64,000 nucleotides of DNA, from the NCBI GenBank assembly GCA_023014335.1, contig JAECYW010000018.1, forward strand, positions 558,001 through 622,000, written 5' to 3'. Below the pieces are notes generated by a model. It was given only the letters and a program-made list of their open reading frames with translations, was not told the DNA's origin and did not search any database. This stretch comes from Galerina marginata (taxonomy: Eukaryota; Basidiomycota; Agaricomycetes; Agaricales; Galerinaceae). Below, in pieces: positions 3,243 through 64,000 of the stretch; the stretch's first letter is position 1; each line of letters begins with the position of its first letter. Both the position numbers and the translations under genes were made by a program.

Positions 3243-4676
3243 CTAATACGTAGGACAGGAAAAGTATTCTGTTTTCCCGTTTTCGTCCACCATTTGCCAT
3301 GTTACTGTAGTCGTTTTTGCATTTCGCAAAAACCATGCCTTGCTGTGGTCAGGAAGTGCCGGGACCCTTCCCATAACTTCCAACGTGGTGAGTGGGTGCT
3401 CGCAAAGTCGTGATGACACTGCACCGTTGTTCCTTGCTTCAACGAAAGCGCAGAGGACGGAGGGGGTAAAGTTTAAGCAGTCCTCGACACTGACGGACAT
3501 TAACCTCCTAAGACGGAAAACCTTGATTGGAAGTTCACTCCACTCGACTTTATAGTCTATTTCAGCACCCAGCCAGGTAATGAAGGTGTCTTTGAAGGAA
3601 GGACAGGAGCAGATGCGAAGCTCTAATCCATCCCATTCCTTCAGAACGTTGCGTAAGCTGCGTCTATCTATATTTGTGAGGACGAGGGTTAGATGGGCAA
3701 GAAACCGCGGTATCCTAGGAATTTGACATGTCGTGAATGAGATAGTACTTTCTTCGAGTTCTGGCAGCGACGAAGCGGCGTAAAAGTGGGATATAAAGCC
3801 AGGGGAGACGGACTGGAAATGGATGCTGTTTTCTATCTCGGGTGCTTCTTCCCTATAGTCTACATTAGTATTGTTGAAGGCATAGGAAAGGGATAAGTCG
3901 CGAAGATGGTAAGATGTGGATGTGCGCCAGGTAGTGATTTTAGAGAGGTACAACACGAAATTCTCTATCGTGTAATGTCCGGTTTCAAGGAAGGCAAACT
4001 GGGAGACGTAGAGTGACCTGAGCTGCGCAACACTGTGGCTAAACCAGTCTGGGGATTGTGCGCTAAGTATGAGATACATAAACCAAAAGCCTGTCAACGA
4101 CAAAGTCTTCAGTTTCGGAAAAGACTCTGCCAAAGGTGGGTCCATGTTCTCTATGACCGTCCATGGATGGTTGCCAGCGGCGATATCATCAGCGCGGGAA
4201 GTAAGGTAGAGCTTTTCGATGTTTGGAAGATCTTGGCGGAAAAAAATTATGGGGGACGGAAGGCAAGAAGAGTAGGTAATGTCGATTGTGACAGATTTGC
4301 ATCTGTGAATATGGGGAACCAGGGCTTGAACGACCCGAGACACTCGGTCGTATTCCAAACTTCTGTCATTTTCATGAGCAATATCCGGGATCTCTGAGCT
4401 GTTGAATACCAGAACTTCAATGCCAGTACGCGCGTTCGACCATAGAAAGACGTCGATGAACGGTGTCGGGTCCTTCGTAACGTCAAAAACGACTTGCGTC
4501 CAACATTCATGGAATTCCGATAGTATATCGCGCCATAGTCTGCATACAAATGCAGCATTATATGGGAAAAGCGTGGGTGAACGGAGGTCCCCTTCGATCC
4601 ACTTCAAGAAGTGTAGAGACCTATGAAACTGCAGGATCAAGGCATGAAGTTCAAAGGGCAAAGTCGATGGAGGCAT
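3243..4676 (-). CDS. F-box-like protein (copy A)
   Basis: Single-exon gene of 477 residues, ATG at 4674-4676. The N-terminus (LPFELHALIL...) followed by FPYNAAFVCRLWRDIL and CWTQVVFDV fits the degenerate F-box common in Agaricomycetes, where the F-box helices precede a leucine-rich-repeat-like region with irregular strand/helix pattern (SFPKLKTLSLTGF, LRDLSLSYAF, HLTLVLTNI). F-box proteins recruit substrates to SCF ubiquitin ligases. It lacks about 33 residues present near the N-terminus of copy B (between the F-box start and WIEEDLRS), so one copy has gained or lost that block. Otherwise the two copies are very similar along their full length. It is convergent with BTB copy 2. Confidence 0.8.
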   Translation of the reverse strand: MPPSTLPFELHALILQFHRSLHFLKWIEGDLRSPTLFPYNAAFVCRLWRDILSEFHECWTQVVFDVTKDPTPFIDVFLWSNARTGIEVLVFNSSEIPDIAHENDRSLEYDRVSRVVQALVPHIHRCKSVTIDITYSSCLPSPIIFFRQDLPNIEKLYLTSRADDIAAGNHPWTVIENMDPPLAESFPKLKTLSLTGFWFMYLILSAQSPDWFSHSVAQLRSLYVSQFAFLETGHYTIENFVLYLSKITTWRTSTSYHLRDLSLSYAFNNTNVDYREEAPEIENSIHFQSVSPGFISHFYAASSLPELEESTISFTTCQIPRIPRFLAHLTLVLTNIDRRSLRNVLKEWDGLELRICSCPSFKDTFITWLGAEIDYKVEWSELPIKVFRLRRLMSVSVEDCLNFTPSVLCAFVEARNNGAVSSRLCEHPLTTLEVMGRVPALPDHSKAWFLRNAKTTTVTWQMVDENGKTEYFSCPTY

Positions 4677-4811
4677 AGTTTTGTTAGATTTAAGGCTCAG
4701 CGACGAGCGGCGAGTCTGCGACGATGGGAGCTCTTGATAAGGCTATCTAAAATCAAAAACTTATGATCAAACATCAACGCGACTCGGCCGAGTCGGCCCG
4801 TAAGGGGATGG

Positions 4812-5347: not shown

Positions 5348-6892
5348 TCACCCATGTGAGGTAAAGTTTTCTGTGTTCCCGTTTTCGTCCACTGTTTGCC
5401 ATGTCACTGTCGTCGTTCTTGCATTTCGTAAAAACCATGTCTTAATTTGGTCAGGAAGAGCGGGGCCCCTCCCGATCACTCTCAACCGGTCGATTGGCTC
5501 TTCGCAAGTTTGTGAACTTTGTGATGTCAATTTTGCACCATTGTTCCTTGCTTCGACGAAAGCGCAGAGGGCGGTAGGGGTAAAGTCTGAGCAGTCCTCG
5601 ATATTGAGGGAGTCTAACCTCCCATGACGGAACCCCTTGATTGGAAGTTCACTCCACTCGACTTTATAGTCTATTTCAGCACCCAGCCAGGTAATGAGGG
5701 TGTCATTAAAGGAAGGACAGGAGCAGATGTAAAGGTTATACCCATCCCATGCCTGCAGAACGTTGCGTAAGCTGCGTCCATCTATATTTGTGAGGACGAG
5801 GGTTAGATGGGCAAGAAACCGTGGTATCCTAGGAATTTGACATGTTGTAAATGAGATGCAACTTTCTTCGAGTTCTGGCAGCGACGAAGCAGCGTAAAAG
5901 TGGGATATAAAGCCAGGGGAGACGGACTGGAAATCGATGTCGCCTTCTATCTCGGGGGCTTCTTCCCTATAGTCTCCGTCAATATTGTTGAAGGCATAGG
6001 AAAGGGATAAGTCGCGAAGATGGTGAGATGTGCGCCCGGTAAATTTGGAGAGGCACAACACAAAATTCTCTATCGTGTAATGTCCGGTTTCAAGGAATGC
6101 GAACTGGGAGACGTGGAGTGACACGAGCTTGGCAACACTGTGGCTAAACCAGTCTGGGGATTGGGCGCTAAGTACGAGATACATAAACCAAAAACCTGTC
6201 AACGACAAAGCCTTCAGTTTCGGGAAAGACTTTGTTAAAGGTGGGTCCGTGTTCCCTACGACCGTCCACAGGGGATTCCCAACGATAATATCGTCAATGC
6301 AGGAAATGAGGGAGAGTTTTTCGATGTTTGAAATATCTTGGCGGAAAAAAATGGTGGGGGGCGGAAGACAAGAAGAGTAGGTAATGTCGATGGTGACAGA
6401 CTTGCATCTGTGGATATGGAGAACGAGGGCTTGAACGATCCGAGAGACTCGGTCAGATTCCAAATCTCTATGACTTTCTTGAACAATATCCGGGGCCTCT
6501 GAGCTGTTGAACACGAAAACTTCGATGTCAGTCAGTGCTTTCGACCATAGAAAGACGTCGATGAACGGTGCCGGGTCCTTCGCCACGTCAAAAACGACTC
6601 GAGTCCAACATTCAGGGATTCCTGCGAGTATATCGCGCCAGAGCTTGCATACTGAGGCAATGTTATACGGGAACAGCGAAGTTGAGCGGAGGTCCTCTTC
6701 AATCCAGTTGAAGAGTAAAGGTTCATCTGAGTCCCAAGGGTCCTCCTCGATCCGCTTGTAGCGTTGTGGTCCATCGGCGACGTATCGAAGAAGAGACTTG
6801 AGTCGACGAGATAAGGCAAATTCAAACTTCAGGATCAAGGCTTGAAGTTCAACGGGTAGGGTATGCAAGGCCGCTGAAGCCATGGTGGGCAT
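5348..6892 (-). CDS. F-box-like protein (copy B)
   Basis: Single-exon gene of 514 residues, ATG at 6890-6892; a second in-frame Met lies three codons in and aligns better with copy A. F-box-like N-terminus (LPVELQALILKF), then an inserted 33-residue block rich in R, D and E that copy A lacks, then FNWIEEDLRS and SVCKLWRDIL. The rest is an LRR-like region as in copy A. Probable SCF ubiquitin-ligase adaptor; substrate unknown. Divergent from BTB copy 3, with about 230 bp between starts, so the two may share a promoter region. Confidence 0.8.
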   Translation of the reverse strand: MPTMASAALHTLPVELQALILKFEFALSRRLKSLLRYVADGPQRYKRIEEDPWDSDEPLLFNWIEEDLRSTSLFPYNIASVCKLWRDILAGIPECWTRVVFDVAKDPAPFIDVFLWSKALTDIEVFVFNSSEAPDIVQESHRDLESDRVSRIVQALVLHIHRCKSVTIDITYSSCLPPPTIFFRQDISNIEKLSLISCIDDIIVGNPLWTVVGNTDPPLTKSFPKLKALSLTGFWFMYLVLSAQSPDWFSHSVAKLVSLHVSQFAFLETGHYTIENFVLCLSKFTGRTSHHLRDLSLSYAFNNIDGDYREEAPEIEGDIDFQSVSPGFISHFYAASSLPELEESCISFTTCQIPRIPRFLAHLTLVLTNIDGRSLRNVLQAWDGYNLYICSCPSFNDTLITWLGAEIDYKVEWSELPIKGFRHGRLDSLNIEDCSDFTPTALCAFVEARNNGAKLTSQSSQTCEEPIDRLRVIGRGPALPDQIKTWFLRNARTTTVTWQTVDENGNTENFTSHG

Positions 6893-7125
6893 GGTGTGGT
6901 TGGATTTAAGGCTCGGCGCTCAACAACGCATAAGACTGGCATGAGGTTCGGACATCACCGATTCGGCCCCCAAAGAGGCCATACAATCATGTCGTTTGGT
7001 GGTTATAAAACGGACTTACGTCGTCATCCATCCGTCTACAGCTCAGCCAGCTCTTGTACTCCTGTGCAGAAAAAAAGATTAGGGGGATTACTTTTGCCAA
7101 GCGAGGAGTGTAAACGCGCTATCCT

Positions 7126-35210: not shown

Positions 35211-36056
35211 CTAACACTGCGGCGGATGCGCGATAACGCTCGAAGGAGTTTGGAACAACTTCACCTCGGCCGCTCGCCGATTTACCAGGCCTTGCAATAC
35301 CATCCCACCCGCTATATCCCACTTGGGCAGCTCCTGCGCTGCGACCGTGTTCGGATTATCGCCCGCGTTGAGCCGCGCGATCAAGGTCGAGCTTCCAACG
35401 TTTCCACAACCCTCGTTGAACGCCCACGAGCTTAGGGCGCCGTACTGGTTATCGTTTAGCTTGATCTTGCTGCTGATATCCTTGGTGATGCACGCAGTGA
35501 ACGTCTTCAAATCAGTCTTAAGGAGAGTGGTGGCTTCCGCTTCGGTAAGTGGGAAGGAAAAGGGAACCTCCGCACAGCCTGTAGTTTTGCAAAGGTGTCC
35601 GTAGCCGACGGTGGGTAGACCTATTGGGTCGGGTGCTGGTTTGGAGACGAAACCTTCAAATTTCTTGATAAGGCTGATCGTGGCAGCATTTACTACGGGC
35701 GGAGCACAAGTCGTCGCCGCTGGGAGGCAACAGAGGAAGTTACTCGGTCCTGGACAAAGCCCTGAAAGATAATGAGCAATGAACACCCCAGATTCCATAT
35801 TGACCTACCAGTCTGTGTTTTGCCGCTGCTACAAGAGCTGGAGAATCGACAAGTACCTCCACTTCCGCAAGTCTTCGTGCAGCATTGAACATTAGTGGGG
35901 TCACTGGGACAGAAACCCCGAGTGGGATGTACCACCCGCAGAGGAGCAAGAGCTGGTGGTAAGACAGACGCCAGGGGTGCTTCCTGCGGTACACGCAGAA
36001 TTTATGGCGGCTTGTGCGACTGAAAAAGAGATGGCTAGGAGGATTATTCGATACAT
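35211..36056 (-). CDS. Secreted GH24-type lysozyme with two Cys-rich modules, one frameshift
   Basis: Exons 35809-36056 and 35211-35761; about 265 residues after allowing for one extra base near 35912. Signal peptide (RIILLAISFSVAQA), then two similar cysteine-rich modules of about 37 residues (GVCLTTSSCSSAG...GFCPSDPTNVQCC and GTCRFSSSCSSGK...GLCPGPSNFLCC). The catalytic domain begins near residue 127 with ISLIKKFEGFVSKPAPDPIG and PTVGYGHLC, matching the phage-type (T4-like, GH24) lysozyme signature with Glu, Asp and Thr in register. The extra base falls inside the first module, in the run GGGTTTCTGTCC; without it GFCPSD reads correctly. Expected to cleave bacterial peptidoglycan outside the cell; fungal GH24 genes are thought to derive from bacteria or phage. 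Confidence 0.85.
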
Positions 36057-51880: not shown

Positions 51881-52232
51881 AAACAGTAGAACTTACATGT
51901 TATCATTCAGTGAGCATGATAGTCAGCGTCAGTTAACCTGCGTTGATGGTGGTTGAGGTGACAGATAGTTGGAGTGGCTGTGTTTGAACCGGCCACACAC
52001 CAAAATACGGAAATAGAAGGTGACGGGCCGAGATCGGCAGAGTTTGGCGCCAACCTATAGTTCAGTGTAGACAACAAAATAATAATCTGGTAGCGGATTG
52101 CAGGTGTCCATGTTTCAACGAGAGCCGCGTTGCATAGAGGAGTACACAATTTAAAGTAAACTAGGACCAAACGAGTTGGGAAAACAGATTTAAATTGCAA
52201 CTATTGTTTCCTCAACGACGTTCTTACAACAT
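51881..52232. other. Intergenic region
   Basis: No feature recognised between the membrane-gene fragment and kinase copy 1. Confidence 0.4.
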
Positions 52233-53537
52233 CTATAACTCCTCTTGCTCGATGACGACCTCCTGAGCGCGGGCATCGATGACATATTGTGGGAGCGGAC
52301 ACGGGATATGCAGGGTTGAGGGCGGTACAGATTGGACGTATTCGGCGAGCTTCTGCAATGCTTGGGCGGCTGTAGGTCTGTTCTCTGCCTTCGGTGCAAT
52401 AAGTTCAGACCATAACTGATCTACCTCAATTATTCCCGTCTATGTATTTAATTAGATGAGTCCGAGACGTTTTTCCAACCAGGAAACAGAAACGCACCGG
52501 GTGTGCCTTGTGAAGATCAGATCCAAACTGCCACATATCAAGCATAAAAGGCGAGTATAGGTCTCCGCCTTTCGAGCTCTGGCGGCATTGGGCGTCCATA
52601 CACTTCCCGCTTGAAAGGGCAATCCGAGCAAACTCGATCAGATTCCTTTGAGGTTTCAGGGAACTCTACAGCCGTTTCGAAATCTATGATATAAAGTCTG
52701 GGTCGAGTGATCGAGCGACCATGGATTAAGGAAGCAGGACACCATTCTACCATGAAGTTATTTGAAAAGAGATCCTAGGCCAAGGCTTTAGTACAATGTG
52801 CACGACGAGATCAGATTTGAACCCTACTCGGTGGGCGATTAAATTGTCATGAAGGAAGGTTATCCCCTGTTTCCAATCAATAAGAACTAAGCCAGAAGGA
52901 TACATGATCAAACACACACCTCCAATGCTTGGAGCACCATGTACAATAGGTCTTCCACAGAAGAGAACTCATGCATGCCTGCGGCCCAGGGGAAGTCGTA
53001 GCTGCATCTCGGAAAAATACCAATTACTATATCCTCGAAAAGCAATTTCGTCTAGCATTGGCAGTATGTGGTTTTGGCCGCGCAAGGCACCTGGTGGGCT
53101 GGATATGCGTCGCATGATATCAAGGTGGTTGTGGCCTTGACCGCCTGCCGTCATGACTCGGAGGATAAAGTCCCTCCCATCACGACGACGGGCAGCATGA
53201 GAAAGCCCATTATAAGACAAGTACTGTTTTACTCTGAGGAGAGAACGCTCTGTGTTAGGCCCTAGGAAGAAATAGTTATCCGCCGGTGGAAGTTCTTTGG
53301 TCTCCCTGTTCTGCGATCCGAAGCCGACCGCCCAGCGCTGCAGTCCATGCTTCGCTAGAAGTGGTTCTAGAGCCTTCCAAACCTCCATATAGTCGTCATC
53401 GGGACCGTAGAGATTTCTCCACACTTCCAAATCCTTAGGGAACTAAATCATAAGTCCACATGTCAGTTTACGGAGTCACGTTAGATCAGGAAATGATTCA
53501 CCGCATCACGAATGGGCATATCGATACCGGAATCCAT
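52233..53537 (-). pseudogene. Protein kinase-like protein, copy 1, two frameshifts
   Basis: Minus-strand exons 53502-53537, 52920-53442, 52828-52866, 52498-52774 and 52233-52439, the same plan as copy 2. Relative to copy 2, exon 2 is 523 nt instead of 522 and exon 4 is 277 instead of 276: single extra bases lie in an A run near 53038 and at about 52568. Everything else aligns. Shared features are FPKDLEVWRN, the catalytic loop HRDLFSNN (split by an intron between HR and D), YIIDFETAVEFPE in place of the usual DFG, and YGRPMPPELE. As read, the C-terminal lobe is lost. Whether the breaks are real or assembly errors is open. Confidence 0.8.
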
Positions 53538-54678
53538 CGCGGAGGGAAAGGAAAGCCGTGAAGACGAAGCTAAAAGTCGACGATTAAGTAAGTACAATGG
53601 CCAATTTATCCGGCGTCAATAAGAAGGATAAGGTAATCGGTTGGGCGCCGGGTATGCCAGTGCCTCGTGGCTCATTTAATCTCCAGTCCGTCCCCAACTT
53701 GTGTGCGTGCTGTGGGATTCAAAACCCTGAAGAGTCTTTATCGATGGAAAATAAAGTGCTCTGACCACTGTAAGTCCACTCGTGCCAAGGAAATCCATAT
53801 CATGAAGCGACCGAAACCCTTGATTGATAATTAATCGATAATTGGTTCACAGCCAAAGGCTTCTTTGCAACTCAATTCCATATATTTTTTTGCAGACGGA
53901 GAGAGTTCCTGAACTGGGCACAAAGGGTAAGGGTTTGCAAACATTCCTCCACCCCTTCCTTGTAAAATCAGTAAACTTCTCCAAGCCTACAAATGACGCC
54001 CGGAAAAGACTGCGACCGAGGGGACTCGGAGAATACAAGTAATGGAAGCCTCCATAAAGAATGAGATATTCTCTAGAGAAATACCACATGACTAGCAGGA
54101 TTTGAGTTATAATATAAGATCGAATCGGAAACATCTTATCACGGCGGCCCTTGTGGTGGGTTTTGGTTTGACAATCGTCAGTCATTAAGTGTCAGCTCCA
54201 AGGCGGGGCATTCCTCAAAAGGTTATTCGAGCTCGTTTAGGCCATGCTTCGTGAGATAACACAGCACCATGGTTGCCCGAGATGAACGTTGGCTTGTTTT
54301 CTGTCCACGTACCCAGAAAATAAGTTTTGCCACGACTGAATGACGGGTAAATGTCGGTCTGGTGGTCCTATCGTGCTGTGCAATGTTGCTACAACTTCCT
54401 TATTTGCCTAGGTGGACAACTCATGTTCTTAGGTTTGGGTTTGATTATGAATGAATAATATCGGTGACAGTGGAGTTTGTACTAGTTTCAGCGCTCGTAC
54501 TTGGGAGTATCTTCAGATCCTGTGAACAACGGTCCCATCCATGAGTCAATAAAATGCAAACAAGTCATGAGAGATACACGCCAGTCGCCTCGAGGCCGGG
54601 AGTGAATAAGATTATTCGAGTTGAGCAAATGTGGAATGTACGCCATGTATCAAGTGTATCAGCGCTCCTCGCTTTCAC
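53538..54678. other. Shared upstream region between divergent kinase 1 and small gene A
   Basis: About 1.2 kb between divergent starts. Similar to 59132-60454, including the GTCAATAAGAAGG and AGCGCTC..ATCTTCAGATCCTGTG segments, so the regulatory region was duplicated with the genes. Confidence 0.6.
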
Positions 54679-54686
54679 ATAAATAG
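54679..54686 (+). promoter_or_regulatory. TATA-like box of small gene A
   Basis: ATAAATAG, 81 bp upstream of the small gene A start. The same octamer lies 84 bp upstream of small gene B, with CTCAAAC and CTTC motifs shared in the leader. Confidence 0.6.
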
Positions 54687-54759
54687 TGGACTAACCACCA
54701 ACCAACTTCCAAGGACCTTCTCCCCTCTCTAACTCAAACCACTTCAACGACCAATCAAC

Positions 54760-55202
54760 ATGAACCAAGTAAGTAGAGTTGTCACTCTGCCCACCGTCCA
54801 CAAAGTTTCTAATCTACTTTATCACACCGGAAAGACAACCACTCTGACGCCTGATGTACGACGTTGCACTTTCTTCTGTCTCCAACAGACTTCTAACGTA
54901 GTACGGTACTCTAGTCCACTCGTTTGACTTTCAAGGTCAATGGCATCCGCTACGTCGGCGTCTACCAGTCATACACCGAGTCTACTAGGGGGGTAAGCGT
55001 CAGAACTTTGAAATCTGTTTCTTCATAAGCTCAAATTTATCTGGCTAGGTGTGTTACACCGTCAGTTTTGTAGACGGTACTACCTTCCGCCTCCGAGGGG
55101 GAAAAATCACTACGTGAGTGCCATTAATTGTTAAACTTGGCAACAGCTCATCACTCTTATAATTAACGTAGCAATCCTGTCTCGGCCACGCGCCCTCCTT
55201 GA
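54760..55202 (+). CDS. Small five-exon gene A, 67-residue protein of unknown function
   Basis: Exons 54760-54768 (9 nt), 54835-54855 (21 nt), 54915-54992 (78 nt), 55049-55113 (65 nt) and 55172-55202 (31 nt), all with GT..AG and agreeing phases; 67 residues. I found it by comparing the two duplicated copies: the frame survives in both only when introns are removed at these sites. The protein begins MNQTTTLTPD, then LTFKVNGIRYVGVYQSY, a VSFVDGTTFRLRGGKITT strand-like block and NPVSATRPP. It has no signal peptide, no membrane segment and only one cysteine. Alternating hydrophobic residues suggest a small beta-rich fold. No family recognised. Divergent from kinase copy 1. Confidence 0.65.
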
Positions 55203-57835
55203 GTTATTATTCCCGCTTTCTGTAGGCTATTCGTGTAAGAATCCTGTTGATTGAAAGACTGTGAGACTCGGAAACTCGAGCAATAGTAAATGTATTGCTC
55301 AGCTTCGAATATATGATATAATATGGTGTTTTATGTTAAGTGGAACGTGACGCGCAGCATAGTGAGTGAGCTTTATATTTACGATTGCATTGGATTATAT
55401 TGAGTAGACCGCGCCCGTTTATCTTTGATTTCTGAGTTTTCACGTACTCTTGCACCAAACGATGGTAGATGGCTCTTAATGAGCGATGGCGCTGACGTAC
55501 TCTTAAGGAATGCTTAGCACGAAAGAGGAATTCTTGAAATTATGTAAAAGGATGTCATGATTAGCGCGCTGATTTAAAGCGCCGAGTCAGTGAGTTCTAT
55601 TTTTATAATCGCTAGCCACGTGACGGGCTCATCGCTACACGTGCCTTCAATTTTCTGGTTCTCTTTCAGTGCTTGCAAACGACCGTTACGACCCTCAATA
55701 ATCAGTACTGTCTCCACCGCCATCTTGTTTTGTACGCCCTCAATGAATGTATTGTATGTACCTTTCATGTTTCTTCTACTTGTACAGAGCTTATACCTGT
55801 CTACAATGCTTCGCGGCGAATATAAACGTGAATGCCACCGCGTAGTACCCCCTCCGGCTTGACGGGTGGGCAGACATCTTGACCCTCGAATGGATGGTAC
55901 GAGGCAGAACGTCGGTGTGTGGCAGTAGGTTGGGCTGATGGATGTGGAAGATGTAGGGGCGGTGGTTGTGATGTCAACTCATTCCGCGTCACTACGACCT
56001 GGAGCTCTTGAATCGCTCGCGTTCTTTGTTTGCCTCTTGTCAAGGTCTTATTCTTTTTCCTGTTTCATAGCTTCCATTCACGTGGGATACACTCCTTGTT
56101 TGCTGGCCTGGTTGCTTTGACTTCAGTCAGCATGTTCGACGTTCCAACACGTTCCAACACTCCTTCCCCAGCTGTGCCCTTCAAATGTCCAACTTTGACT
56201 TCCCGATATGAAACACAACCTCAACCGATGCACTCCCAGTGACTTCCCGTACCGCTTTTCAACCCTGTCGAGCACACGATGCCCATATTCGCCTGCCGAC
56301 TTCGACATTACTGACACATCACACTTGATGTTGGGTCTTTCTAATGCTTACGACCAATCCTGCTTTCTTAGGTCTATGAAGACGCATAGCATGTGATTTT
56401 TGTGCATGGGCAGCCTTATTTATTGCCTGAAGCTTGATGTCGGGAAATCGATTCGACGACGTGGCTTCCAATCTCGACCCAGTTCAGCGTGTCATCGTCG
56501 TCAATGGTCTTTGTTGCCTGGGTTCCTTCCCCCGCGTCCTCCTATCTTTGAGCCACTAACGGTCCGCAGATTAAGCGCGAAATAGACCAGACTGCTCAAA
56601 TACGGTTAGTACTCCTTCCATATTGTTGTATCTAACCATGCTGACTGGCCGTCAGCGAAGCTGCATCACTCATTGTATATCTCTACCTCTCGCCACCCAG
56701 CCCACGCGTCGCACTCACCCCCTGCTAATCTAAGGAGGAGAGAAAATTGGTGACCACCGGCGTGCCCGACGACGACCTCTCCGAGAAACCTAAAATCGTA
56801 CGTCTCTTTCCTTGTTGCCTTCTCTCCACCACAATTCCGACCAACCCTTCCTCCATCGCCTCTTCGTATATATAAGCTTTTGCGACGACTGGCGTCATGC
56901 ACACCTGCTTCCACTCCACCCAGCCGCTCTTCATCCAAGGCTTCGAGCTCAGGCGCCCCTTCATGGCTGCCAGCCTGTTCGGTTGCACGTCCCTGACCCC
57001 TCCTCTTACCCCTTATTTTTTGGGGGCTAACTTCATCATTATCCAGCTGCTAACAGTCCTCAAACAGACTCAGTCGCTAGTACAGAGGCCAAGATGGATC
57101 TTGAGAAGGACGAGGAGTGATCGCGTTGTTGAGACGCTTGCTATCTATCAATATACCGGAGTAGAAGTACGAATAATGCAGGTTGCTAATTAATAGGTTT
57201 CTCAGTCCGCATCTTGTAGTGGTTTCACATGAACCCAAGCCACGCCGCTTTTGCAGTCGCACAAAAGGCATCTCCACAGGACACGAACTTTGTAACTACA
57301 AACTTCAGGTATGCCTGAAAGGCAATGTTTTCTCTGAATTCTCACTTTAGTCGACCTAGCTCGCAGCAGCAGCAGGGTTTTGGATACCCGACTCCCCCAA
57401 GTCACAAAGCTCGAGTTTGACCATTTCACAGATAAACCGTAGGCGATCCCACTTCAAGTACGTCCTGCATCGGTCTCAGTCCGCCTTTTTGTTCCTGATT
57501 GATAGTCCGACGATCCAGGCAAACCAATCCGAAATGCGCTCATTGGAGGCGTTTCCGGTAAGCTGGTTTAGGGAGAGTGGCCGGAACGAAATCTGGGCGT
57601 AAATGGGCCCCGTTTTTGCCACACAACGTGATGGCCCTCTAAGCGAGTAAGCTGGTTGCAGGAGACTGGCGGCTGCAAGGCTGTTTGTGTTTCTAGTCTT
57701 AATTCTCCGATTGACTTCTGCATGACACAGGTAACATTGGCCTGGAGTGCAAGTTTTATGGTAATTCCTAAGTACATCACATAATCTCGACATCTATGCT
57801 TACAGAGGGTTCCGAGTCAGAACCAACAATTATAA
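55203..57835. other. Long intergenic region between duplicated units
   Basis: About 2.6 kb. The first 200 bases are the 3' flank of small gene A and match 61754-61840 beyond the solo LTR. A minus-strand frame of 105 codons (57476-57793) has an ATG but no recognisable features. Otherwise nothing coding is seen. Confidence 0.5.
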
Positions 57836-59131
57836 TCACTCTTGTTCGACAACGGCCTGTTGAGCGCGGGCATCTAGGACATATTGTGGGACCGGACACG
57901 GAATATGCAGGACAGAGGGAGGTACAGATTGGACGTATTCGGCAAGTTTCTGCAATGCTTGAGAGGCCGTAGGTCTACTCTCTGCCTTCGGTGCAATAAG
58001 TTTAGACCATAATTGATCTACCTCAATTATGCCTGTCTAGGTATCGAGAAAGTTGAGCTTAAGGCGCTGTCCAATCAGGCAAAAGAAACGCACCGGGTGG
58101 TCCTTGTGGAGGTCAGATCCAAACTGCCACATATCCAGCGGAAAAGGCGAGTATGGGTCTCCGCTTTCGAGTTCTGGTGGCATCGGGCGGCCATATGTTT
58201 CCCGTTCGAAAGGGCATTCCAAGCAAAGTCGATCAGATTCGCTTGAGGTTTCAGGGAACTCGACCGCCGTTTCGAAATCTATGATATAGACTCTGGGTCG
58301 AGTGATAGAGCGGCCGTGGCTTATGGAAGCAGGACACCATTCAACCATGAAGTTGTTTAAAAAGAGATCCTAGGCCAAGCTGTTAGTACAATGTGGACCG
58401 CAGAAATAAATCTGAACCGTACTCGGTGGGCGATTGAGTTGCCATGAAGGAAGGTTATCCCCTGTTTGCAATTGATAAGAACTAAGCCAGAAGAGTACGT
58501 GATGAGGCGCACACCTCCAATGCTTGGAGCACCATGTACAAAAGGTCTTCCACAGAAGCGAATTCATCCATTTCCGCAGCTTCAGTGAAGTTGTAACTGC
58601 ATCTCGGAAAAATACCAATTACGATATCCTCGAACACGATTTCATCTAGCATTGGCAGTACGTGGTTTTGACTGCGCAAGATATCTGGTGGGCGAGATAG
58701 GCGTCGCATGATAGTAAGGTGGTTGTGGCCTTGGCTGCCAGCCGTCATAACTCGAAGGATGAAGTCCCTCCCATTATGACCGCATGCAGCATGGGAAAGC
58801 CCGTTCCAAGACAGGTACTGTTTTATTCTGACGAGAGAACGCTGTGTGTTTGGCCCTATGAAGATATAATTATCTGGCGGTGGCAGTTCTTTCGTCTCCC
58901 TTCGCTGCGATCCGAAGTCGACCGCCCAGCGCCCTAGTCCGTGCTTCGCTAGAAGTGGTTCTAGGGCCTTCCAAACCTCGATATAGTCGTCATCGGGACC
59001 GTAGCGATTTCTCCACACCTCCAAATCCTTAGGGAACTAAGTTATAAGCCCACATGTCAGTTTACGAAGTTTCGCAGGATCAGAAAAGAATTCACCCCAT
59101 CACGAACAGGCATATCGACACTGGAACCCAT
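57836..59131 (-). CDS. Protein kinase-like protein, copy 2
   Basis: Exons 59096-59131, 58515-59036, 58423-58461, 58094-58369 and 57836-58036; 357 residues, intact. Kinase fold inferred from the catalytic loop HRDLFLNN (His198, Asp200, Asn205), with the intron falling between HR and D, and from YIIDFETAVEFPE, where Asp230 takes the Mg-binding position but Gly of DFG is replaced by Glu232. C-lobe signals are YGRPMPPELESG, LDMWQFGSDL and KAESRPTASQALQKL. The N-lobe (FGSQRRETKELPPPDN and on) lacks an obvious glycine-rich loop, so activity is uncertain. Similar kinase-like proteins are expanded in mushrooms. Divergent from small gene B. Confidence 0.85.
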
Positions 59132-60454
59132 TGCAAGGCCAAAGGGAAGCTATGAAGACGCAGGAATCTAAAAGCAGAAGATTAAGTACAATGACCGATT
59201 TATTCGGAGTCAATAAGAAGGGTAAGGTAATCAATCATTTTTTCTGACTTGTGGAAATACATGGGATTTCCTCTTACGCCACGCCTTTTTTTTGACTACA
59301 TACAAGCAGCCAGTGTTTCCTGTGCCGTCATTGGATCGGAGAAAATGTGAGCGTTTGTTCGCTCAAGTATATACTGAGCAACCAGAATATCCGGAGAAAT
59401 CTACAAATATTTGTGGGTGCAGGGTATGGTGCCTCGTGGCTCATTTAATCTCAGTCTGCTGCCTCCTCGTGTGCGTTCTGTGAGATTTGAAATTCGAAAC
59501 CCTGAAAATTTTTCTTAACTGCGTATAAAGTGCTTTTACCACTGTAAGTCCATCCGAAGGAAAACTACCGATCCCTTGCATCCATATTTTCATCAAATAA
59601 AGCGGCGGTGGTTAGATCGTGACTCGACTCTGATATTAGTGACTCAATCTCTCGGTTAAAGACCAATTAATTCCATATTTTCTGCAGACGATAGACAGAT
59701 CCCGCCGATTCGATTGACGCCAACAAAGAATGCGACAGGGACGGGAGGAGGAGGAGGAACGATGGGTGCTTCCATAAAGCATGAGTCATTCAATTCTTTA
59801 GAACAGGATGGCCGGGTTTCGATTTATAAGATCAATTCGGCAAATGTTATCATGGTGCGATTCTTGTGGTATCAGTCATAAATTTGTCACCTCCAAGACG
59901 AACAATTCCTCAAAAGGCAATTCAGCCTCGATTCAGGTTATGATTCGTGAGATAACACAGCATCCTGATTGCCTGAGATGGACTTTGGCTTGTTCTCTGT
60001 CCACGTACCCAGGATGGCTAATTTTAGTCATGGCGCAGGGTAAAAATCGGTCGGATGGTTCTATCGTGCTGTGAAATATGATTATGACTTCCTTATTTGC
60101 CTCCGTGGACAGCTCATGTACTTTGGTTGAGATTAAGGGGTAATGTCGGGCTGTGGAGTTTGTGCAGCGGGAGATAAGACAGTCTGGAGTTCCCAAGGAC
60201 GACTACCATCGCCGGGTGGAAAAAGTAGGTCCTTGAAATTACCCAATAAGTAACTTGATCTTCAGCGCTCATATCTTCAGATCCTGTGGATGACCTTGGT
60301 TTGGTCCAATTTAGGAATCAATAAAATACAAAACAAGTCATACGATGTACATGTAACCTGCCTCGAGGCCTGGAGCGAAACAGATTGATGCCCTTGAGTC
60401 AAGCACCCAAAGACAACAAATGTGGAATATACGCTGATTCCTGCTCGTTTTCGC
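59132..60454. other. Shared upstream region between divergent kinase 2 and small gene B
   Basis: About 1.3 kb, duplicated counterpart of 53538-54678 with indels. No separate gene seen. Confidence 0.6.
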
Positions 60455-60462
60455 ATAAATAG
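60455..60462 (+). promoter_or_regulatory. TATA-like box of small gene B
   Basis: ATAAATAG, 84 bp upstream of the ATG; conserved in position and sequence with small gene A. Confidence 0.6.
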
Positions 60463-60538
60463 AGGAGTAACCAATAGCTAGTTAACATCCTCGCACCTTC
60501 TCCCTAATTCACTCAAACAACTTCATTTCGCTACCAAC

Positions 60539-60976
60539 ATGAACCAAGTATGTATCCCATCGTCGCTCTGCTCTCCGTACACCAAGTCTCTAATCTATGT
60601 TGTCACGCTCGGCAGACAACCACTCGGACGCCCGACGTACGAAGTTGTACCTTCTTCTTCCTCTTCTGGACTTCTAACGTCCTCTAGGTAACTCGTCTTG
60701 CTTTTTGGCATAATGGCGTTCGATATGTCGGACTTTACAAGTCCTTTACCGAGTCCAAAAGAAGGGTAAGCTTCCTAACTTTCAGATAAGATTTTTCATC
60801 AACTCAATTCTTATCTGGTTAGGGGCCGCTGTACAGGGTAGTTTGCGCAGACGGTACCAGCTGCCAAATTCGAGGTGGGACGATCACCACGTAAGTGCTA
60901 GTAGTTGTTAAACTTGGCAATAGCTCATTAAAGTTATATTCAACGAAGCGATCCTGTCTCGGCTACATTCCCATGA
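60539..60976 (+). CDS. Small five-exon gene B, 67-residue protein of unknown function
   Basis: Exons 60539-60547, 60616-60636, 60688-60765, 60823-60890 and 60949-60976 (9, 21, 78, 68 and 28 nt); 67 residues, the same length as gene A even though exon 4 is three bases longer and exon 5 three shorter. Begins MNQTTTRTPD, then FWHNGVRYVGLYKSFTES, DGTSCQIRGGTITT and DPVSATFP. Roughly 60 percent identical to gene A by my count. The frame, phases and the GGxITT core are kept. The exon 3 acceptor used here, CTCTAG, is present in both copies; another acceptor closer to the conserved NG pair exists only in A. Function unknown. Confidence 0.65.
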
Positions 60977-61028
60977 GTTATTATTTCCGCTTCCTGGATG
61001 TAGTATCTGTGTTGCCTGAAATACTGTG

Positions 61029-61753
61029 TGTGAGGGTACAAGTACGATCTAACCTTTTCCGAGACGTATCTAACAATCCTCTCGCTTCTCCCTAGCTCAT
61101 CTTTGAACGTTCAACCGTTGTACTACCAATTCAGAATACCTTCTCGCAGACGCCCGACCGTCTCCACCTAGTTCAGCTTATGTAAAAACATGTCTAAGTT
61201 TCGAATCCATCAAATCGTTATCTTTAGCGCGCGCTTAACGATTTGTCCCTTACTTAAGTAAGCGTGAGACGGATAATTCCGAGAAAGTCCGGAATAACCG
61301 TTCAGTCGAAGACTTACCTCGAGAGACCTCAAGAATATTCCAGATTTCGAAGATTTCTGCCTGAATCTTCCTGAAGACTGTAGATTAGTTGCAACATTCC
61401 TTATACATATTTCTTAGGTATTTAAACACGAGTGCTTAGTGCTTTCGAATATCATACTTACTTTTACCCACTTTCAACTGCGTGAACACCGCGAGTCTTC
61501 GCCGTCTAATTAGCAACGCTCCAGAGCTGCTATTATACGAAGAATCAAGATCTAAACGTTAAGGTCTCGAACTAACGTTTATCTCTCTCGGAACTATTTC
61601 GCTTTCCGCGTCTCGACGAACCTCAAGACACTGAACCTTTCAACTCACTTTCATCCTCGTAAATACCTGTAAAATCGGTATTTATTCATATTGAACCAAT
61701 TCTTTTATATTCACAGGAATATACCAAAGTCTAACTACATACGTACTCTAACA
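61029..61753. mobile_element. Solo LTR with 5-bp target-site duplication
   Basis: A 725-bp insertion present downstream of small gene B but absent at the matching place near gene A. It starts TGTGAGGG and ends TCTAACA, so it has the TG..CA ends of LTRs, and is bounded by CTGTG at 61024-61028 and 61754-61758. The empty site near gene A (about 55260) carries CTGTG once, in ACTGTGAGACTCGG. It has no coding capacity, which fits an LTR left after recombination between the two ends of a retrotransposon. No second copy in the window. Confidence 0.8.
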
Positions 61754-61862
61754 CTGTGTGACTCGGAGACTCGGGAAATAGCAGGCGTATTATTGAGCTT
61801 CAAATCTACGATTTATTATATTGTTGTCTGTTAAGTACAAGATCCACCTAGTGCTGTCACCA

Positions 61863-61930
61863 TTGTGCATAATTTAACTCTAATGAGAGTCAAATCATTA
61901 TGCACACTGGGCTCTAGGTCAGAGGTCTGC
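61863..61930. repeat. Imperfect palindrome, inverted-repeat arm 1
   Basis: TTGTGCATAATTTAACTC then AATGAGAGTCAAATCATTATGCACA forms an imperfect palindrome of about 42 bp. The same segment plus about 20 further bases (GCTCTAGGTCAGA) recurs inverted at 63460-63545. Possible terminal repeats of a decayed DNA element. Confidence 0.5.
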
Positions 61931-63459
61931 TTTTAGTGGACGCTGCTGATTTGAAATATATGTCGTCCTGCTACTCCACATGGCCATGTGAGCAAATCTA
62001 TTATTATCGTGCATGGTTAACTTTCGATGGCTCTGGCTTTTCCGAATTGGGCCTATGAGAGGCGGCGCTTCCCGCCTAGCTGTCCCGATCTAGTTCAGTT
62101 GCTTGCTCGCTGGTGTCCCTACGAAGCATTCCTGCCATAAAAAGGAAAAAAATTGAGCTGCCGCATACCAAGGGGCTGAGGTGCGATTCGGGCTCGGAAG
62201 CTCAAACAGAAAACAAGGTTGGCTGGGGTCAAGGTACTGAGTACTGAGCAGGAGAGTTTAAATATCGTAAAAATCAAAATTGAATAAAATTTCAAATGGG
62301 AAAGGTGATTACTGAAAATATAATGGCGACAATACGAACAATGGAGTGTGGTGCATGGGGGAACCGACAAAAGCCGTCGTTGCTTAGCAGAGGCCTTTTG
62401 AAATCGCCCCCGGGAAGACGACGACGGGCAATGTGGCTGTGTCCGGCACGGAAGTAAGCGGTCGAGCGCCTATTGCGAGCGATTGCGCAGAATCAATGAA
62501 ATCCAGCGTTGGAACGTGAAGAGCGCGACGACGCCTATTACAAAGGATGATTTTATTTTTTATTTGACCCCCCCCCCCCCCCCCCTTGTGGGAATCACAG
62601 TGAGATAGTACGTTAGTCTGCCAGGCTTCGACTACTGTAGGGCACTTAGCAGGTGATCCTTCTACTTCGGCACTTGAGATGATTGTTTCATAAGATCTAA
62701 ACTGATTGATTGCAACGCCTTTGAAGTCAACAACAATTACTGGGTTGGTTATACATTCAGGACGAGCCTCACATCAATGAGACGGTTAGATAGGTTGACT
62801 GATCTCTCAGGATTGTTGTCGCTATCTCGACGCGCATTATCGTGCTTGTCAGAACAATCTTGCCTTTCTTTCAATGCAAAATTGAGGTCTGATTTATTCA
62901 ATACCGCCATACATTACTTTCAAGGCTTGAGCTCAGTTATTGAAGTATTGTTGTCGGATGAGTTTTAAACTATCTGTAAGGCTGGGTAAGTGCAAGTTAC
63001 GACTGGTATATGATCGGGTGACCATTCACTTTTCTACAAGAACTGTCATATCTGTCACGTCCGAGTCCACAGTATTTAATCTCAATGCGGATAAAGCAAC
63101 CTTAGAGCAAGTATTTATACTCGGGTAAAGGTGCATGAGCAGCCATCTGAGTTGTAGTCTGAGAACCGTGTGAGACGATGGTCGGGACAGTCGCATACAG
63201 GTCACATACCCCGGGATGAGGTGCGGCCCGAGTGGCCAAGCCAATTGTCGCCGTCGTCACGAACGATGACGGTGCGAATTGATCGCTGCTCCTCACGACA
63301 TCTCGAAAGTTTGATCTCCTATGTCCATTTGGACATGTTCCACACTTTTGGGAGCGGTTTCCGAAATGTTCTTCTCCATAAGGTCTTCTTGTAAATTTAT
63401 GCATAATTTATGCGACGCCTCCCATCTGAGCAGACTGCACAGCCTCCAACTCTCGCATT
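61931..63459. other. Region between inverted repeats, no gene recognised
   Basis: About 1.5 kb with only short open frames on both strands. Contains an 18-C homopolymer at 62568-62585. Could be the body of a decayed non-autonomous element, but no transposase-like sequence is visible. Confidence 0.4.
62568..62585 (+). repeat. Homopolymer tract of 18 C
   Basis: Uninterrupted run of 18 C following TATTTGA. Its length is unlikely to be exact in an assembly. Confidence 0.9.
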
Positions 63460-63545
63460 TTGCTTCGTCATGCATAATTCTGGCTTAGAGCATATTGTGT
63501 ATAATGGATTTACTCTCATTAGAATCAAATTATTCACAATAATAG
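63460..63545. repeat. Imperfect palindrome, inverted-repeat arm 2
   Basis: Reverse complement resembles arm 1: TTGTGAATAATTTGATTC then AATGAGAGTAAATCCATTAT, followed by GCTCTAAGCCAGA (arm 1: GCTCTAGGTCAGA). Confidence 0.5.
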
Positions 63546-63964: not shown

Positions 63965-64000
63965 AGTTCTTGGAGTTCCAAACCTCCATATAGTCGTCAT
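63965..64000 (-). pseudogene. Third kinase-like copy, partial, runs off the window
   Basis: The last bases (TTCCAAACCTCCATATAGTC and on) match the minus-strand kinase exon 2 at 53380-53400 and 58970-58992, which encodes DDDYMEVWKALE. Sequence to the left is unrelated to the rest of the kinase, so this copy lacks the C-terminal part. More of it should lie beyond the window. Confidence 0.7.

What the first reader, a model, noticed from the sequence alone, without database searches (positions are those of the whole stretch)
54760..60976. A tiny, finely split gene (67 codons, five exons) conserved in two diverged copies
Seen directly: both copies join five short exons (9/21/78/65-68/28-31 nt) with GT..AG borders and identical phases to give exactly 67 residues. 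They differ at roughly 40 percent of residues but keep length, the RYVG and RGGxITT blocks and a PVSAT end. Exon 4 is three bases longer in B and exon 5 three shorter, so the frame is kept. Both have ATAAATAG 81-84 bp upstream. Keeping the frame while diverging suggests selection on a protein. Inference: an undescribed small protein, possibly intracellular, since there is no signal peptide.
Basis: partly seen in the sequence, partly recalled or inferred. Interest (0 to 1): 0.78.

Follow-up and report, generated by a model that had tools for sequence, protein, structure and literature searches.

The report
Unannotated duplicated mini-gene in a mushroom
Two neighbouring copies of a 67-codon reading frame in five pieces, in the genome of what is apparently a Galerina-like mushroom, differ less in their protein than the same number of random changes would make them, so they likely encode a small, so far unlisted protein that is predicted to be a basic, beta-rich binding module inside the cell.

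Summary
Copies A (54760-55202) and B (60539-60976) each join five exons, 8 of 8 GT..AG borders, to 67 residues. They differ at 23 of 66 aligned residues (35%, not 40%). Differences fall 14/17/30 on codon positions 1/2/3; dN/dS is 0.31 (bootstrap 0.15-0.57); 0 of 20,000 substitution-only simulations from each copy changed so few residues. A translated protein is likely, but no RNA was seen.

The copies lie in a tandem duplication with a divergently oriented kinase-like gene whose closest listed relative is Galerina marginata GALMADRAFT_95203. The kinase beside A has frame breaks; A's mini-gene has none.

Against a simple story: exons 3+4 differ more than the introns (52/143 vs 55/231, p=0.01), and frame keeping alone is weak evidence (1 to 74 of 400 neutral runs do as well). 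No homologue was found among 5.8 billion proteins, in Pfam, Rfam or elsewhere in its genome (10-12, 44, 45). Many short introns are usual in mushrooms (recalled). Verdict: a likely real, probably ordinary lineage-restricted small gene; function inferred only.

The parts
54679..54686 (+). TATA-like ATAAATAG, copy A, 81 bp before the ATG
54760..55202 (+). Mini-gene copy A; exons 54760-54768, 54835-54855, 54915-54992, 55049-55113, 55172-55202; 67 aa
60455..60462 (+). TATA-like ATAAATAG, copy B, 84 bp before the ATG
60539..60976 (+). Mini-gene copy B; exons 60539-60547, 60616-60636, 60688-60765, 60823-60890, 60949-60976; 67 aa
52227..53638 (-). Protein-kinase-like gene (with 5' flank) upstream of copy A, same duplicated block; frame breaks relative to copy B at about 53.04 kb and 52.57 kb
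   Evidence: 84% identical DNA to 57824-59232; tblastn with P0001/P0003; gap positions
57824..59232 (-). Protein-kinase-like gene (with 5' flank) upstream of copy B; 93% identical to Galerina marginata GALMADRAFT_95203
61029..61753 (.). Solo-LTR-like insertion (TG..CA ends, 5-bp direct repeat CTGTG on both sides), 52 bp beyond the stop of copy B; absent from copy A

Best explanation
It is likely a real, unannotated protein-coding gene of what is apparently a Galerina-like mushroom, present as two tandem copies, each predicted to be spliced from five exons into a 67-residue, basic, beta-rich protein that would work inside the cell as a small binding module. Shown: the two reading frames, their splice borders, the tandem duplication with the kinase-like gene, and the excess of third-position differences. 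Inferred: that the gene is transcribed from the TATA-like promoter, spliced by the four short introns and translated. Predicted from composition and alternation only: four short beta strands with NG and DG turns (TRLxFxxNG / xRYVGxYxS / xxYxVxxxDG / xxxxRGGxITT), carried by exons 3 and 4, with the N-terminus (MNQTTTxTPD) and PVSAT tail as ends. After duplication both copies were kept; the core exons diverged fastest, as would be expected if the copies came to bind different partners.
For: Same-length frames with 8 of 8 GT..AG borders; best pair among all enumerated chains; codon positions 14/17/30, dN/dS 0.31; 0 of 20,000 neutral simulations from each copy with so few residue changes, third-position excess p about 0.002; exon GC 0.53/0.52 against intron GC 0.41/0.41, and branch-site-like CTRAY 10-22 nt before the 3' border in introns 1 and 2 of both copies. 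pI about 10, beta propensity above helix propensity, no hydrophobic stretch. Weak, non-significant profile similarity to KDM4B Tudor (SH3-like beta barrel, recalled) chains, E 1 and 1.7. Mini-gene A stays open although its kinase neighbour is broken.
Against: No transcript evidence. No homologue to confirm the model. dS of the mini-gene (0.89) is about three times the kinase dS (0.27) and the intron distance (0.24-0.36) of the same duplicated block: unexplained. Hydrophobic alternation is significant in A (P 0.03) but not in B (P 0.46). Frame keeping under a neutral model is not rare when A is taken as ancestor. CTRAY was not found near the 3' border of introns 3 and 4.
Confidence: 0.55

Rival explanations
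1. A real gene, but with a shorter product: intron 4 stays in the message, the stop codons that overlap its 5' border (TGA in A, TAA in B) end the protein after RGGxITT, giving 58 and 59 residues from four exons.
For: The three-intron chains are among the enumerated solutions, score 177; intron 4 is the best conserved intron (12 of 58 sites differ, next 11 of 51), as if it were untranslated exon.
Against: The five-exon pair scores higher (204); 5' borders GTGAGT/GTAAGT are good consensus (recalled) and exon 5 keeps PVSAT in both.
Confidence: 0.15
2. Not a protein gene: the frame is an accident, kept because the duplication is not very old; what is conserved is a promoter or a non-coding transcript.
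For: Neutral runs match the score in up to 74 of 400 cases; introns are better conserved than exons 3 and 4; no homologue.
Against: Third-position bias and dN/dS; exon-intron GC step; no Rfam match in 52000-62000.
Confidence: 0.15
3. A protein gene under diversifying selection (arms-race type): the core exons 3 and 4 change faster than introns because change is favoured, the ends are constrained.
For: Exons 3+4 differ at 52 of 143 sites, introns at 55 of 231, p=0.01; dN is about equal to intron distance.
Against: Synonymous sites are faster still (fourfold sites 13 of 29 differ), which selection on the protein does not explain; multi-hit codons are not in excess (17 of 66 seen, 14.9 expected, P 0.21).
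Confidence: 0.15

Closest known systems
Taxonomically restricted (orphan) small protein genes of Agaricomycetes
   Same: Short, intron-split, no known domain, no hit outside; unannotated genes are described as widespread in fungal genomes (PMC10949477, passages seen).
   Different: Here two diverged tandem copies allow a codon-level test; conservation in other mushrooms could not be shown.
Tudor domains of KDM4 demethylases (SH3-like beta barrels, recalled)
   Same: Weak profile alignment over 34 positions, with the run Y-x-V-x-F-x-DG and a following strand.
   Different: E 1 and 1.7, not significant; no Pfam match; stand-alone 67 residues.
Peptidase inhibitor family I78 (PF11720)
   Same: Similar length and a similar-looking centre (my first guess, from memory).
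   Different: No Pfam match at E<=10.
Small secreted proteins, hydrophobins, pheromone precursors and MSDIN-type peptide precursors of mushrooms (features recalled)
   Same: Short mushroom genes with introns.
   Different: No hydrophobic leader, one or two cysteines, no CaaX end, no MSDIN-like start, 67 residues.

Membership tests
Orphan small protein gene | Open frame kept by selection | tested here: met
   dN/dS 0.31, bootstrap 0.15-0.57; 0 of 20,000 simulations from each copy; but frame keeping alone inconclusive and dN about equal to intron distance
Orphan small protein gene | No detectable homologue outside the lineage | tested here: inconclusive
   none among 5.8 billion predicted proteins, which do hold Galerina and Agrocybe proteins; no other fungal DNA could be searched, and unannotated copies would be missed
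Orphan small protein gene | Transcribed and translated | not testable with these tools
   no RNA or peptide data
Tudor / SH3-like domain | Significant match to a family profile | tested here: not met
   0 Pfam families at E<=10 for A and B; PDB profile E 1 and 1.7
Tudor / SH3-like domain | Five-stranded barrel fold (recalled) | not tested
   structure prediction did not take the spliced proteins
Inhibitor I78 | Match to PF11720 | tested here: not met
   the own-genome search with PF11720 also found none but its control rang nowhere
Small secreted protein / hydrophobin | Hydrophobic leader; for hydrophobins eight cysteines (recalled) | tested here: not met
   best 19-residue hydropathy 0.33 and 0.38, 1 and 2 cysteines; no signal-peptide program was run
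Known RNA family | Rfam match at gathering score | tested here: not met
   0 matches in window 52000-62000

The most novel reading that the evidence does not exclude
The two genes found a new family of very small stand-alone beta-barrel (SH3/Tudor-like) binders that arose in the Galerina lineage, in which the core exons, but not the introns between them, change at an elevated rate in both silent and replacement sites, a pattern that would need a mechanism acting on exons alone (for example conversion by spliced copies).
Probability: 0.12. Interest if true: 0.6.

Novelty: new member of a known kind. Interest (0 to 1): 0.3.

Why it matters
It shows that a tandem duplication lets one test from a single genome whether a tiny, intron-split frame is a gene that annotation missed; such frames are probably many in mushrooms (inference). 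The exon-faster-than-intron pattern, if it holds with more copies, would be unusual. On present evidence the gene itself is an ordinary lineage-restricted small gene of unproven function.

Tried and rejected
Inhibitor I78: my first guess, rejected by Pfam; the genome search with that family is uninformative because its control rang nowhere. Homologues: protein A, alignment of A and B (15 candidates, none at E<=1), viral contigs (10 pattern matches, none confirmed): none. Further copies in the same genome: protein A, DNA of A, protein B, exon-3 pattern with one mismatch, DNA of B: only A and B each time (the tool scores only its best candidates). Link to the kinase family: of the kinase matches (7 listed), the places on contigs C40, C42 and C2, and 18 kb to the right of the window, carry no mini-gene beyond tblastn matches of E 0.85 or worse; a third kinase start at C10:621966-622028 (first 21 residues) has only two pieces of the block, 0.27 kb and 46 bp, and no mini-gene. 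RNA family: none at gathering score. PDB by sequence: A none at E<=10, profile only E 0.8-1.7. Literature: five answered full-text searches (listings seen only, 20 of 83, 6 of 6, 12 of 22, 10 of 31 and 3 of 3 papers) listed no title or abstract start about this gene or about a 69-Mb Galerina assembly; of two papers (PMC10949477, PMC8480192) I saw search passages only.

The excess of silent change in the exons was tested against trimming of splice signals (introns trimmed by 6 and 20 bases still 12.5-30% different) and against multi-hit codons; neither removes it. It stays unexplained.

Full report
WHAT IS THERE. The window lies in a 69.3-Mb genome of 43 contigs, contig C10:558001-622000. Introns are 51-68 nt long, exon GC is 0.53 and 0.52, intron GC 0.41 in both. 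ATAAATAG starts 81 and 84 bp before the ATG.

THE SURROUNDINGS. The two mini-genes are parts of one tandem duplication. DNA 52227-53638 matches 57824-59232 at 84%, with further pieces of 75-77% (53642-53778 / 59414-59552; 54178-54435 / 59872-60128) and 69% over 54508-55222 / 60272-60996 that holds the mini-gene. The left gene of the block, on the minus strand, is protein-kinase-like: its best relative among predicted proteins is Galerina marginata GALMADRAFT_95203, 93% identical over 94% of the query and marked PF00069; a second one, GALMADRAFT_39225, has 81% and is listed on a contig of the same length, 1,443,087. Pfam did not mark the two kinase fragments that I gave it. Kinase B is closest to P0001 (GALMADRAFT_95203; 163 of 174 residues, against 79 of 97 with P0003), kinase A is closer to P0003 (GALMADRAFT_39225; 52 of 58 and 39 of 43 residues, against 114 of 135 and 34 of 43 with P0001), so the duplication is likely older than the split of the two genomes (inferred). 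The organism is taken as a Galerina or near relative (inferred from one gene). The kinase beside A has frame breaks relative to B and to the G. marginata proteins at about 53.04 and 52.57 kb, while the mini-gene A is open; I cannot exclude assembly error. A third piece of the block, 0.27 kb plus 46 bp around a kinase start, lies at the right edge of the window (63976 onward) without a mini-gene. Copy B has a 725-bp insertion 52 bp beyond its stop, with TG..CA ends and a 5-bp repeat CTGTG on both sides, like a solo LTR; a partial relative (80-82% in three pieces) lies on contig C23.

IS IT A PROTEIN GENE? Of 66 aligned codons 43 encode the same residue; 61 of 198 sites differ, 14/17/30 at positions 1/2/3; dS 0.89, dN 0.27, ratio 0.31, bootstrap 0.15-0.57. 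In 20,000 simulations from each copy with the same number and kind of substitutions none had 23 or fewer residue changes; 0.17% had 30 or more third-position changes; 19-23% had no stop. This simulation takes frame, splicing and gaps as given. A wider null that lets whole regions drift and then looks for the best pair of spliced frames gave a score of 204 or more in 10, 51 and 74 of 400 runs from A and in 1, 1 and 2 of 400 runs from B (three settings each). So frame keeping is weak evidence when A is the start and the codon-position pattern carries the case.

WHAT DOES NOT FIT. Against the four introns (55 of 231 sites differ, 24%), one search gives: exons 3+4 52 of 143, p=0.0098; all exon sites 61 of 198, p=0.13; all third positions 30 of 66, p=0.0011; fourfold sites 13 of 29, p=0.023; third positions in unchanged codons 18 of 43, p=0.023; in changed codons 12 of 23, p=0.0057 (six comparisons, uncorrected and overlapping). 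The kinase of the same block has dS 0.27 over 130 codons, with 11 of 52 fourfold sites different. So the mini-gene's core exons are faster than the introns, flanks and kinase measured around them, at silent sites too. Relative to silent sites the protein is constrained; relative to introns it is not. I have no tested explanation.

WHAT THE PROTEIN LOOKS LIKE. Both are basic (pI 10.0 and 9.9), 7.4-7.5 kDa, with one and two cysteines and no hydrophobic stretch; beta propensity exceeds helix propensity in both; alternation of hydrophobic residues in the core is above shuffles in A (P 0.03) but not in B (P 0.46). No Pfam family at E<=10, no PDB sequence for A at E<=10; the two-row profile gives five chains at E 0.8-1.7, two of them KDM4B over profile positions 26-59. 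That is no evidence of membership, only a lead to a small SH3-like barrel. Structure prediction was not possible for a spliced protein.

HOMOLOGUES. None among 5.8 billion predicted proteins; one search shows that this collection holds proteins of Galerina and Agrocybe, so the G. marginata gene set probably lacks the mini-gene or models it very differently (inferred). In its own genome only A and B are found.

VERDICT. Observation confirmed; interpretation partly supported. Most likely a real, unannotated, lineage-restricted small protein gene, duplicated with its neighbour. Five short exons in 67 codons look striking but dense short introns are usual in mushroom-forming fungi (recalled). Its function is inferred only: a small intracellular beta-rich binding module.

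Noticed in passing
52227-53638: The kinase-like gene next to copy A has frame breaks relative to copy B and to Galerina marginata proteins, so it looks like a decaying duplicate (or assembly error).
   Followed up: partly
61029-61753: Solo-LTR-like insertion with TG..CA ends and CTGTG repeats just beyond the stop of copy B; partial relative on contig C23.
   Followed up: partly
61862-61923 and 63479-63540: Two copies (81%, opposite orientation) of a short element whose ends look palindromic by eye (gtgcataattt..), MITE-like.
   Followed up: no
63976-64000 and L016:1976-2242: Third, truncated piece of the duplicated block around a kinase start (85%).
   Followed up: partly
3243-4742 and 5348-6919 (minus): Two long, similar open frames (499 and 523 aa), another tandem pair, F-box-like by eye (recalled, not searched).
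   Followed up: no
35211-35804 (minus): Open frame with a lysozyme-like stretch (IKKFEG..GYGH), GH24-like by eye (recalled, not searched).
   Followed up: no
54760-60976: Core exons of the mini-gene differ more than its introns, at silent sites too; unexplained.
   Followed up: partly
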